Assembly (NCBI RefSeq): GCF_900116565.1
Contig: NZ_FPCJ01000001.1
Span: 1,116,001 to 1,180,000, forward strand
DNA: 64,000 nt
Direction of reading: 5' to 3'
From: Thermoflavifilum thermophilum
GTDB taxonomy: Bacteria > Bacteroidota > Bacteroidia > Chitinophagales > Chitinophagaceae
The notes under the pieces were generated by a model that was not told the DNA's origin, ran no database searches, and saw nothing but the letters and a program-made list of their open reading frames with translations. Made by a program: the position numbers and the translations under genes. Positions 48,468 through 51,451 of the stretch are shown piece by piece (positions within the stretch are counted from its first letter, which is position 1; each line of letters begins with the position of its first letter).

Positions 48468-49211
48468 TCAACCGTTTTTCAACAACAAAGCTGCCAATCC
48501 ATAATCGGCCAGCAAAATCAGAATGCAACTGATCACAACGGCTTTGGTACTGGCCTGGCCTATTTCCAGCGCTCCTCCCTGCACATGATATCCGAAATAA
48601 GCAGGTATGGACGAAATAATAAAAGCAAATGTATACGATTTGGCCAGTGCAAACACAATATTAAAAGGTTTGAATTCCAGCACCAGTCCCTGCATGTATT
48701 GCTGTGCAGACAGAATGCCCGAAACTACGCCTGCTATTTTTCCACTCCAGATACCCACAAATCCGGATATCACCACCAGCATGGGTACTACCAGCAGCGC
48801 TGCTAATATCTTCGGCAAAATCAGATAGCTCTTGGTGTTGATACCCATGATTTCCAGCGCATCAATTTGTTCAGAAACCCGCATATTACCTAATTCGGAT
48901 GCAATCTTGGATCCCACCACACCGGCTAATACAATGCTGGTGATGGTAGGACAAAACTCCAATATCATGGTGTCGCGCACTACCTGGCCAATGGTGGATT
49001 TGGGAATGATGGGGCTGACAAGCTGATAAGCCGTCTGAATGGTGGATACACCGCCGATAAATACAGAAATAATCAGCACAATGCTCAATGAGCCAATGCC
49101 TATATCCACACATTGCCGCATAAACTCCTTCCAATACATGCGCCAATTTTCCGGCCGGGTAAACATCCCTTTCAACATCAGCATATACCTGCCAATATGT
49201 GTAAGCAACAT
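48468..49211 (-). CDS. mlaE: Lipid-transport ABC permease, MlaE type
   Basis: A 247-residue membrane protein with five or six helices. MlaE landmarks are GSLSIVLIISVFIGGVSTIQ, TSIVLAGVVGSKIASELGNM, EQIDALEIMGINTKSYLILP and the late GYHVQGGALEIGQASTKAVV. The ATG at 49211 is preferred over one 11 codons upstream. It lies 20 bases upstream of the ATPase gene, and the two form the transporter core. Confidence 0.9.
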   Translation of the reverse strand: MLLTHIGRYMLMLKGMFTRPENWRMYWKEFMRQCVDIGIGSLSIVLIISVFIGGVSTIQTAYQLVSPIIPKSTIGQVVRDTMILEFCPTITSIVLAGVVGSKIASELGNMRVSEQIDALEIMGINTKSYLILPKILAALLVVPMLVVISGFVGIWSGKIAGVVSGILSAQQYMQGLVLEFKPFNIVFALAKSYTFAFIISSIPAYFGYHVQGGALEIGQASTKAVVISCILILLADYGLAALLLKNG

Positions 49212-49293
49212 ACAACGCCATTTTGCAACTGATAAAATTAGCAAATTATGACCTGACTCTGAAACTGTCTAATATTTATTTAAATGCAACAGG

Positions 49294-49689
49294 TTATGCA
49301 TGCCCTGTAAACAGGTTTTCATCGAAATGAATTTCGATACCATCTTTGGTCTTCCTGTAAAAAATCACCGGATAAGGGATTTCCTCTGGCAAAGAAGCCA
49401 TAGCCGCATAACTGATGGGCTTGATGCTCACCGGATGCTCGCCAATATAGCCATCTATGCCCTTTGATTCTTCATCTGGTGATGCCATCCTGTATGATAA
49501 TTTCAACTCTGATGATACTTGCTTAAGAATAGCTTCCTGGAATTTTAACCCAATAAAAGTTTTCACAATCACCCAATCTTTTACCCATTTTTCAATCATT
49601 TCTTCATCAATTTTTTCCATAGCTTCTTTTAATGCATGGAGCATGTCTTCAAAATCCTTGCTAGCTTTATTCAATAAATTTCTACTCAT
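49294..49689 (-). CDS. MjaI-type restriction endonuclease, N-terminally truncated
   Basis: A 131-residue reading frame from the ATG at 49689 (an in-frame GTG at 49725 is possible). It resembles the C-terminal part of MjaI-family (CTAG-type) restriction enzymes: KIDEEMIEKWVKDW, KTFIGLKFQEAILK, DEESKGIDGYIGEHPVSIKP. The last segment carries a PD-(D/E)xK-like core with Asp and the SIK lysine. Family members as I recall them carry roughly 70-80 more N-terminal residues; none is encoded upstream. A methyltransferase remnant lies just upstream on the same strand. It is probably a decaying gene, without proven activity. Confidence 0.65.
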   Translation of the reverse strand: MSRNLLNKASKDFEDMLHALKEAMEKIDEEMIEKWVKDWVIVKTFIGLKFQEAILKQVSSELKLSYRMASPDEESKGIDGYIGEHPVSIKPISYAAMASLPEEIPYPVIFYRKTKDGIEIHFDENLFTGHA

Positions 49690-49961
49690 AAAAATGAAAC
49701 GAAATGATTCATCATGATTCGTCACCGCAAACCACTATTAATCAGATGTACATGATATTTGCGGATACGTATATGCAAGTAAAATATTGCCTGATCACAT
49801 ATTTCATATCCTTATCCGGTATCAGCTTTTTTCTAACTACTTTTCATTTTAGAAAGTTTATTGCCAGTTGTTTTTGATAATGCTGCATAATCATTTGAAT
49901 AAATTTTACCTAAACATCATTATCTGGCTGGATTATTTTCAGGGTAAAATTTCTTAATCTT

Positions 49962-50048
49962 TCAATCGTCCATCAAATGCACGGAATGATTTTCCACTTC
50001 TGTCATTTGCCTGCTATCCCCATGGATGATAATATGATGTGTTTTCAT
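49962..50048 (-). pseudogene. N-terminal remnant of a DNA methyltransferase
   Basis: An ATG at 50048 opens a 28-codon frame reading MKTHHIIIHGDSRQ and later NHSVHLMDD before a stop. GDSR followed by a SVHL stretch is the usual lead-in to the TSPPY catalytic motif of N4-cytosine/N6-adenine methyltransferases. Here the frame stops where that motif should begin. It points toward the truncated restriction enzyme, so both look like ends of one deleted restriction-modification locus. The 49690-49961 stretch between them is AT-rich and has stops in all three minus-strand frames. Confidence 0.55.
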
Positions 50049-50121: not shown

Positions 50122-51267
50122 TCATGCCTGCTGCAATGCCTGTTCCAGATCGGCAATCAAATCATTTACATCTTCAATGCCTACACTTAATCGGATTAGC
50201 GAATCAGATAAACCCGATTTCAATCGTTCTTCCCGCGGGATAGAAGCGTGGGTCATAGAAGCGGGATGGCCAATCAGGGATTCCACCCCTCCGAGACTCT
50301 CGGCCAAGGCAAACAACCGGGTAGAAGATAACACGCGATGGGCTGTTTCAATGCGATCATCTTTCAGGACAAACGACATCATAGCACCAAAATCGCGCAT
50401 CTGCCTGCGGGCAATTGCATGATTGGGATGATCGGGAAAACCGCACCAATGGACCTGCTGCACCTTAGGATGCCGACGGAGAAATGCTGCAATCTGCCGG
50501 GCATTTTCACAATGTCTTTGCATGCGCACGTGCAGGGTCTTCATGCCGCGCAATACCAGCCAGCAGTCGTGCGGACCCGGCACAGCACCGGCACTGTTCT
50601 GAATGAAATGCAACTGTTCGGCCAGCGATTCATCTTTTACCACCACCACACCCAATACCACATCGCTGTGTCCACCTAAATATTTCGTAGCCGAATGCAC
50701 AACGATATCGGCTCCCCAGTCGAGTGGATTTTGCAGCCAGGGGGATGCAAAAGTATTGTCGACACACAGCAAAGCTCCATGTGCATGGGCAATCTCAGCG
50801 CAGGCCTGAATATCCACAATCCGAATAAGCGGATTGGTGGGCGTTTCAATCCAGATTAGCCGGGTACGCTCATCAGCAAACTGTTCCAGACGGCCTGCAT
50901 CTTGCAGATCCACAAACTGAAACTCGATTCCATATTTAGCAAATATGCGGGTAAATAACCGATAGCTGCCACCGTACAAATCATTGGAGGCAATCACCTT
51001 ATCGCCGGGTCGCAAAGTATGCAATACAGCTTCAATAGCGGCCATACCACTGCTGAAAGCAATGCCATATTTGCCATTTTCAATCGCAGCGATGGCATTC
51101 TCCAATACAGTACGGGTGGGATTTTGTGTCCGGGCATATTCATAACCTTTGTGTTTGCCTGGTGCTTCCTGTACATAAGTGGAAGTCTGATAAATAGGCG
51201 TCATAATGGCTCCCGTAGCCGGATCGGGCTCTATACCCGCATGAATCAGTTTGGTGGCTAATTGCAT
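50122..51267 (-). CDS. Cystathionine gamma-synthase / gamma-lyase family PLP enzyme
   Basis: A 381-residue PLP enzyme of transsulfuration. The ATG at 51267 gives the family start (MQLATKLIHAGIEPDPATGA); a reading from 51411 would be too long and would run through the promoter. The PLP lysine is K195 in HSATKYLGGHSD. Other motifs are YEYARTQNPTR, IETPTNPLIRIVDIQ and SLGGVESLIGHPASMTHASI. Sequence alone does not separate MetB (synthase) from cystathionine gamma-lyase; YARTQNPT is seen in both. A promoter lies 24 bases upstream. Confidence 0.9.
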   Translation of the reverse strand: MQLATKLIHAGIEPDPATGAIMTPIYQTSTYVQEAPGKHKGYEYARTQNPTRTVLENAIAAIENGKYGIAFSSGMAAIEAVLHTLRPGDKVIASNDLYGGSYRLFTRIFAKYGIEFQFVDLQDAGRLEQFADERTRLIWIETPTNPLIRIVDIQACAEIAHAHGALLCVDNTFASPWLQNPLDWGADIVVHSATKYLGGHSDVVLGVVVVKDESLAEQLHFIQNSAGAVPGPHDCWLVLRGMKTLHVRMQRHCENARQIAAFLRRHPKVQQVHWCGFPDHPNHAIARRQMRDFGAMMSFVLKDDRIETAHRVLSSTRLFALAESLGGVESLIGHPASMTHASIPREERLKSGLSDSLIRLSVGIEDVNDLIADLEQALQQA

Positions 51268-51290
51268 ACCATGAAAATTGAATGTTGTTC

Positions 51291-51321
51291 CAAAGATAAG
51301 ATGAGCCCGATGGAAAATAAA
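51291..51321 (-). promoter_or_regulatory. Promoter of the transsulfuration gene
   Basis: The -7 element TATCTTTG (51298-51291, minus strand) is exact. A TTTA with one mismatch to TTTG lies 19 bases upstream (51321-51318). The leader would be about 17 bases, too short for a riboswitch. Confidence 0.55.
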
Positions 51322-51451
51322 ACCGTTGATGATTTCTGTTTGCTGCCTGCCACATCTTAAATCATCCATCACATGCTTGTGGGATATCAAGTTAAAAACA
51401 TCATTACACACTCACATACATTCAAATACATTCCTCTGCATATACAAAAAA

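What the first reader, a model, noticed from the sequence alone, without database searches (positions are those of the whole stretch)
49294..50048. Decayed MjaI-type restriction-modification locus between mlaE and the transsulfuration gene
A truncated frame with MjaI-family endonuclease features (GLKFQEAIL, EESKGIDGYIG, VSIKP) lies downstream of a 28-codon frame that looks like the start of a methyltransferase (HIIIHGDSRQ...SVHLM) and stops just before the expected TSPPY motif. Both are on the minus strand in an AT-rich gap. Together they look like the two ends of a restriction-modification pair after an internal deletion. The surviving 131-residue piece keeps its reading frame and PD-(D/E)xK-like residues, which raises the question of whether it is retained for a purpose.
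Basis: partly seen in the sequence, partly recalled or inferred. Interest (0 to 1): 0.7.

Follow-up and report, generated by a model that had tools for sequence, protein, structure and literature searches.

The report
Decayed MjaI-type restriction-modification locus
This stretch is the wreck of a bacterial DNA-cutting defence pair (a cutting enzyme and its protective DNA-marking partner); related species keep the pair whole, half or not at all at the same spot, so it is an ordinary but well-documented case of gene decay.

Summary
Window 49294-49725(-) encodes the C-terminal part of an MjaI-type endonuclease (PF09568 positions 46-164 of 164, E 5e-39). 50048-49971(-) is the first 26 codons of its methyltransferase (77% identical to an intact congeneric one). 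So two deletions are seen, not one.

Five congeneric genomes show different states at this one site: intact pair (G001); methyltransferase fused to the last ~20 endonuclease residues (G003); fragments (window, G004); nothing recognisable (G002). Endonuclease alleles fall into two lineages although the flanks are ~90% identical.

The fragment keeps the predicted PD-(D/E)xK core but lacks residues 1-71, with four of the family's five invariant columns. No cognate methyltransferase was found elsewhere in the genome. Recent truncation explains the open frame; retention for a purpose is not needed but not excluded. In passing: an exported-looking MjaI subfamily without an adjacent methyltransferase.

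The parts
49971..50048 (-). First 26 codons of the methyltransferase (the frame runs on 2 codons to a stop at 49962-49964)
   Evidence: 77% identical to G003, 69% to G001; E 1.9e-6 in the whole-genome search; keeps 11 of 11 columns that are at least 90% conserved among methyltransferases
49787..49942 (-). Decayed remnant of the methyltransferase C-terminal SNase domain, two stops inside the matched stretch
   Evidence: profile 332-383 of 424, 12.0 bits, 0 of 500 shuffles as good; pairwise match to G003 extends to about 49972-49766, 18 of 67 residues identical; the intact enzyme is PF01555 plus PF00565
49294..49725 (-). C-terminal part of the MjaI-type endonuclease, open frame; homology from about 49680 (residue 72 of the intact 199-residue G001 protein) to the stop
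   Evidence: PF09568 46-164, E 5.2e-39; 52% to G001 over 128 residues; keeps 28 of 30 near-invariant columns
49681..49786 (-). Junction between the methyltransferase remnant and the endonuclease fragment: methyltransferase end and endonuclease residues 1-71 lost
   Evidence: no endonuclease profile match in 49726-49830 (119 of 300 shuffles as good); methyltransferase profile 1.0 bit there, 3 of 300 shuffles as good, left open
50122..51411 (-). Flanking gene: cystathionine gamma-synthase-like, start more likely near 51267
   Evidence: PF01053 E 4.7e-160; NF005871 above its cut-off; same neighbour in G001, G002, G003; in G004 on another contig
48468..49244 (-). Flanking gene: MlaE-type permease
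   Evidence: PF02405 E 2.3e-63; same neighbour in all 5 congeneric genomes

Best explanation
The locus is a dead Type II restriction-modification pair of the MjaI kind. Shown: an intact congeneric pair at the same site encodes an N4/N6-type methyltransferase with a C-terminal SNase domain, overlapped by 4 bases by an MjaI-family endonuclease; in the window the catalytic two thirds of the methyltransferase and the first 71 endonuclease residues are gone. Inferred: the pair once cut foreign DNA, probably at CTAG, while the methyltransferase protected the host. The endonuclease must have been disabled before or together with the loss of protection; the deletion that removed its N-terminal helical module would do that. 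The remaining 131-codon frame encodes the predicted nuclease core without that module and is most likely an inert, recently truncated leftover whose frame has not had time to break.
For: Profile matches to both genes and the C-terminal methyltransferase remnant. Intact pair in the same order at the same site in G001; a methyltransferase-only state in G003 with the last ~20 endonuclease residues fused in frame (79% over 14 residues to the window); a second broken copy in G004. No other cognate methyltransferase: the G003 enzyme finds only the stub and a 66-residue motif match in G000, and the only PF01555 match is a 758-residue frame. The fragment lacks N30, G45, W62 and Y66, four of five invariant columns of 35 family members. 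Recent truncation: 28 of 30 near-invariant columns kept, 11 of 11 in the stub, and a neutral frame of this length would be expected to carry a stop (95%) only after about 63 substitutions, 0.16 per site. In 62.9 kb aligned with the sister G001, CTAG was newly found 25 times in G001 only and 5 times in the window only, none shared, as if pressure against CTAG ended later in the window lineage. No promoter excess was found in the gap.
Against: The methyltransferase C-terminal remnant is far more decayed (6 of 17 conserved columns) than the endonuclease fragment (28 of 30; Fisher p 4e-5), so the pieces did not decay evenly; that could mean constraint on the fragment. The fragment keeps the predicted catalytic residues and has a usable start. 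G004 keeps a similar core in frame. CTAG as the target rests on relatives and is not shown; CTAG depletion does not track the system across relatives (6 bearing .05-.42, 12 without .05-.76, p 0.12), and CTAG is avoided in most prokaryotes anyway (PMC4687349, passages read).
Confidence: 0.92

Rival explanations
1. The 131-residue core is kept for a purpose, for instance as an inert subunit that blocks or tunes another nuclease, or as a separable DNA-binding or nicking module.
For: Frame open while the methyltransferase remnant is ruined (28 of 30 against 6 of 17 conserved columns); G004 keeps a similar core (25 of 30); core-only MjaI frames with their own ATG and a shared 365-residue partner frame exist in two distant genomes (G078 and G275).
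Against: Recent truncation gives the same picture. The G004 frame has a stop just upstream and its first standard start is a TTG giving 113 residues. No promoter excess in the gap. In the phylum sample (62 of 395 genomes matched) no other clean core-only match passes the cut-off. The G078 and G275 cores belong to a different branch of the family.
Confidence: 0.07
2. A stable independent short MjaI-like family, never part of a pair here.
For: G004 has a similar short frame and no intact methyltransferase.
Against: Methyltransferase pieces flank the frame in the window and one was found at the G004 contig end; intact pair at the site in G001; the two short frames are of different allele lineages, G001 with G004 at 99.7/100 support.
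Confidence: 0.01
3. Assembly or sequencing artefact.
For: None found; not tested with reads.
Against: Window genome is 2 contigs at 100% estimated completeness and 0 contamination, and the locus lies inside a 2.85 Mb contig; the gap has only short chance-like matches elsewhere in the genome.
Confidence: 0.01

Closest known systems
MjaI / MthZI-type Type II restriction-modification (PF09568 endonuclease with an m4C-type methyltransferase, target CTAG)
   Same: Endonuclease family match; 50% identity over 122 residues to the MjaI-family endonuclease of Methanothermobacter plasmid pFZ1. Linked methyltransferase in the sister species.
   Different: Window copy truncated, methyltransferase dead. 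The congeneric methyltransferase is of another subfamily (35% over 285 residues to the pFZ1 one) and carries a C-terminal SNase domain. That pFZ1 encodes MthZI is recalled; M.MthZI as a CTAG m4C enzyme is from passages of PMC5867850.
Solitary and truncated restriction endonucleases (Ershova et al. 2012, PMC3488263; passages read)
   Same: They report 272 solitary endonuclease genes, 99 likely fragments, 74 with corrupted methyltransferase genes nearby; this locus is that kind of object.
   Different: Here both genes are fragments and a five-species series at one site shows intermediate states.
Traces of lost R-M systems as site avoidance (Rusinov et al. 2015, PMC4687349; passages read)
   Same: CTAG is strongly under-represented in the window genome (23 observed, 280 expected in 364 kb).
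   Different: They name CTAG as the one site under-represented in most genomes whatever their R-M content, and my own controls do not separate the groups.

Membership tests
RE_MjaI endonuclease (PF09568) | Match above the curated cut-off | tested here: met
   134.2 bits against 22.7
RE_MjaI endonuclease (PF09568) | Full-length domain (164 positions) | tested here: not met
   46-164 only
RE_MjaI endonuclease (PF09568) | Invariant N-terminal columns N30, G45, W62, Y66 | tested here: not met
   invariant in 35 of 35 aligned members; absent from the fragment, which starts at residue 72
RE_MjaI endonuclease (PF09568) | PD-(D/E)xK-like residues (EES..GIDG, IKP) and core fold | tested here: met
   residues conserved; fragment model mean pLDDT 86.2. 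For the intact model the best solved match is I-Ssp6803I, Z 6.7, 3.4 A, 86 residues, over 109-199; Z under 8 is weak, and Foldseek found nothing at E <= 0.001. Which residues are catalytic is recalled, not tested
RE_MjaI endonuclease (PF09568) | Cleavage at CTAG | not testable with these tools
   needs an assay
Type II R-M system | Linked functional methyltransferase | tested here: not met
   26-codon stub plus decayed C-terminal remnant
Type II R-M system | Cognate methyltransferase elsewhere in the genome (separated pair) | tested here: not met
   only a 39% match over 66 residues, in a 758-residue frame; an unrelated enzyme of the same specificity is not excluded
Stable short MjaI-like family | Core-only frame recurring in relatives without methyltransferase traces | tested here: not met
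   start positions 38-46 in 3 of 12 matched relatives (window, G004, G078), each with methyltransferase pieces nearby; in 62 matched of 395 phylum genomes the window is the only such clean match above cut-off

The most novel reading that the evidence does not exclude
The C-terminal nuclease core of MjaI-type endonucleases is a separable module that is repeatedly kept without its N-terminal helical module after the methyltransferase is lost: in the window and G004 independently (two allele lineages), and, with its own start codon and a shared 365-residue partner frame of no known family, in two distant genomes. It would then have a new, non-restriction role.
Probability: 0.07. Interest if true: 0.65.

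Novelty: new member of a known kind. Interest (0 to 1): 0.33.

Why it matters
One intergenic site in one genus holds an intact pair, a methyltransferase with an endonuclease tail, two kinds of fragment and no trace, with two endonuclease allele lineages. That is a compact natural series for asking in what order an R-M pair dies, whether dead pieces are ever reused, and how quickly a genome regains the avoided site. The wider lesson, that R-M pairs decay and leave fragments, is already known.

Tried and rejected
Rejected: remnant of endonuclease residues 56-61 (TGNKLS) in the gap. The short match lies inside the stretch that fits the methyltransferase better, in another frame, and the endonuclease profile finds nothing there.

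Rejected: pairwise dN/dS as a test of retention. Synonymous sites between the endonuclease alleles are saturated or undefined. The flanking-gene values were made in a wrong frame for one gene and are replaced.

Tried: CTAG avoidance as a marker of the system. Within the genus it looks telling: observed/expected window 0.08, G003 0.15, G001 0.40, G002 0.67, and G004 0.11 on only 16.8 kb. Across relatives it fails: 6 genomes with the endonuclease .05-.42, 12 without .05-.76, p 0.12. Left out of that test before the count: G000, G001, G003, G004, G078, G011, G127. G011 and G127, with weak matches, are at 0.00 and 0.01; G001, with an intact pair, is at 0.40. So the CTAG clock is only suggestive.

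Tried: remnants in the G002 gap (470 bases). Endonuclease profile 0.6 bits, 14 of 300 shuffles as good; methyltransferase profile -1.1 bits, 106 of 300: nothing claimed.

Tried: solved relatives by sequence. None for the window fragment or for the family profile at a meaningful E-value. One search is a second look at Foldseek's own list; families not listed there are not excluded.

Not done: codon-model branch tests, strain-level comparison, read-level checks. The G004 site is split over two contigs, so sequence between the two pieces is not seen.

Full report
WHAT IS THERE. On the minus strand between mlaE and a cystathionine gamma-synthase-like gene, the frame 49294-49725 matches PF09568 RE_MjaI at E 5.2e-39 over profile positions 46-164 of 164. 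The 28-codon frame from 50048 matches PADLOC Type II methyltransferases at E 3.8e-4 at best and the intact congeneric enzymes over codons 1-26 with 77% (G003) and 69% (G001) identity. The AT-rich stretch between them (GC 0.30 against 0.46 for the window) is not empty: 49942-49787 fits the methyltransferase C-terminus with 12.0 bits, where 500 dinucleotide shuffles reach at most 9.6. The intact enzyme is PF01555 plus a C-terminal SNase domain PF00565 (E 3.1e-9), and the remnant is of that domain. So two deletions are needed, one inside the methyltransferase (about codons 27-322) and one from the methyltransferase end to endonuclease residue 71.

THE SITE IN FIVE CONGENERIC GENOMES. G001: methyltransferase of 431 residues and endonuclease of 199 residues, overlapping by 4 bases, both open, same order, same neighbours. 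G003: methyltransferase open (447 residues from its ATG), endonuclease absent except for its last ~20 residues, fused in frame to the methyltransferase end; 14 of these residues are 79% identical to the window's. G004 (contigs broken here): endonuclease from about residue 63 with one stop at about 66, and on another contig a decayed methyltransferase piece beside the neighbour gene (14.2 bits, 0 of 300 shuffles). G002: about 470 bases, GC 0.26, no recognisable remnant. The window is the fifth. Flanking genes put the window and G001 together (100/100) with 90% base identity over 624 codons.

TWO ALLELE LINEAGES. The endonuclease tree (25 sequences, 128 columns) groups G001 with G004 (99.7/100) and puts the window with other Bacteroidota proteins L002 and L013 (84/83). 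The window fragment is 67/126 identical to G001 and 73/124 to L002, although the flanks are nearly the same. Stub and tail similarities suggest that G003 shares the window's lineage, on little sequence. The likely reading is allele replacement at a fixed site; accelerated change after decay could add to the distance.

WHAT WAS LOST AND KEPT. Among 35 family members, five columns are invariant: N30, G45, W62, Y66, G146. The fragment has only the last. The model of the intact G001 protein (mean pLDDT 94.9) has six helices before residue 73 or so, then two long helices and the strand core; the fragment model (86.2) starts with the helix that begins at residue 73. Weak solved matches of the nuclease kind (I-Ssp6803I, Hjc, NhoI, DpnI and others; best Z 6.7) cover residues 97-199, all inside what is kept; Foldseek itself gave nothing at E <= 0.001. 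So the core is predicted to remain while the most conserved module is gone.

IS IT KEPT FOR A PURPOSE? For: the fragment keeps 28 of 30 near-invariant columns, the methyltransferase remnant only 6 of 17 (Fisher p 4e-5), while the worst intact enzyme in a leave-one-out check kept 12 of 17 (that alignment holds 30 rows, the G003 enzyme twice). G004 keeps 25 of 30. Against: the methyltransferase stub is as well kept as the fragment (11 of 11), so the SNase part may simply have died earlier; the frame is short enough that about 63 neutral substitutions would be needed for a 95% chance of a stop; no promoter excess lies in the gap; the G004 frame has no good start; and in a phylum sample 62 of 395 genomes match PF09568 and, above the cut-off, only the window starts at positions 30-60, apart from the second piece (30-67) of one broken copy in G675. 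In 62.9 kb aligned with G001, CTAG occurs 25 times in G001 only, 5 times in the window only, never in both; of the 25, none is CTAG in G003 (14 differ, 8 equal the window, 3 unaligned), while eight control palindromes differ at most about 1.6-fold. That fits a nearly CTAG-free ancestor with pressure ending later in the window lineage, hence a young wreck. The weight of this is limited: CTAG avoidance does not track the system across relatives and is common everywhere (PMC4687349, passages). I put retention at 0.07.

TARGET AND PARTNER. No cognate methyltransferase was found elsewhere: the G003 enzyme finds in the window genome only the stub and a 66-residue motif match, and PF01555 finds one 758-residue frame. 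CTAG as target is inferred: the nearest named relative by plasmid search is the MjaI-family endonuclease of Methanothermobacter plasmid pFZ1, 50% over 122 residues; M.MthZI, M.BfaI and M.MjaI are described as CTAG enzymes in passages of PMC5867850.

KNOWN OR NEW. Solitary and fragmentary endonucleases beside ruined methyltransferases are a known kind (PMC3488263, passages). PMC6471742 (passages) cites work in which orphan methyltransferases neighbour degraded endonucleases, as in G003. This locus is a new member of a known kind.

SIDE FINDING. In the order of G196 (loci labelled Desulfobacteraceae or Desulfococcaceae), 29 of 242 genomes match PF09568. Of 27 loci whose N-terminus could be read, 10 start with a signal-peptide-like stretch (12-residue hydropathy above 2.5), and 0 of these 10 has a related methyltransferase in the held flanks (about 1.5 kb a side, less at contig ends); of the other 17, 15 do. 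All are full length for PF09568 where tested, and eight pairs have dN/dS of about 0.09-0.24. However, 7 of the 10 genomes carry elsewhere a methyltransferase of the subfamily that sits beside MjaI-type endonucleases in other genomes, one more has a piece, and two have none of that kind. They may thus be separated pairs, exported nucleases, or both. The one literature search on this (8 of 13 titles seen) listed nothing on it.

Noticed in passing
L026:3689-4363, L027:3689-4378, L022:2789-3472, L020:3707-4360, L032:3647-4381; L070, L072-L077: MjaI-family proteins with a signal-peptide-like N-terminus and no adjacent methyltransferase (0 of 10 loci, against 15 of 17 without such an N-terminus), in five loci directly downstream of trpA (L026, L027, L072, L073, L074), dN/dS about 0.09-0.24 in eight pairs. 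7 of 10 genomes have an unlinked methyltransferase of a fitting subfamily. Possible exported restriction-type nuclease.
   Followed up: partly
L010:60-2013 and L094:1414-3411: Two distant genomes share one arrangement: truncated MjaI-type methyltransferase, a 365/366-residue frame (70% identical to each other, no Pfam family above cut-off, best PADLOC E 0.0026), then an ATG-started MjaI endonuclease core lacking the N-terminal module, with 2-base spacers on either side of the core's upstream neighbour in L010. No plasmid match and no confirmed viral-contig match for the 366-residue frame.
   Followed up: partly
L055:1386-2729 (G003): Methyltransferase whose stop is lost and which ends in the last ~20 residues of the deleted endonuclease, in frame.
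   Followed up: yes
L053:1452-2744 (G001) and relatives: The MjaI-linked methyltransferase carries a C-terminal SNase domain (PF00565, E 3.1e-9); its role is unclear, and in the window this is the most decayed part.
   Followed up: partly
window and sampled stretches of G000, G001: Sister species with a roughly five-fold difference in CTAG density (23 in 364 kb against 96 in 300 kb) and no shared CTAG in 62.9 kb of alignment.
   Followed up: partly
G127 and G011 (L174-L179, L217-L219): CTAG nearly absent (1 of 147 and 0 of 37 expected) in genomes with only weak MjaI-family matches; G127 in the first 40 kb is also poor in GGCC and GATC.
   Followed up: no
phage records H4-H13: Ten cyanophage records (Synechococcus hosts) encode MjaI-like endonucleases 37-43% identical to the fragment.
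   Followed up: no
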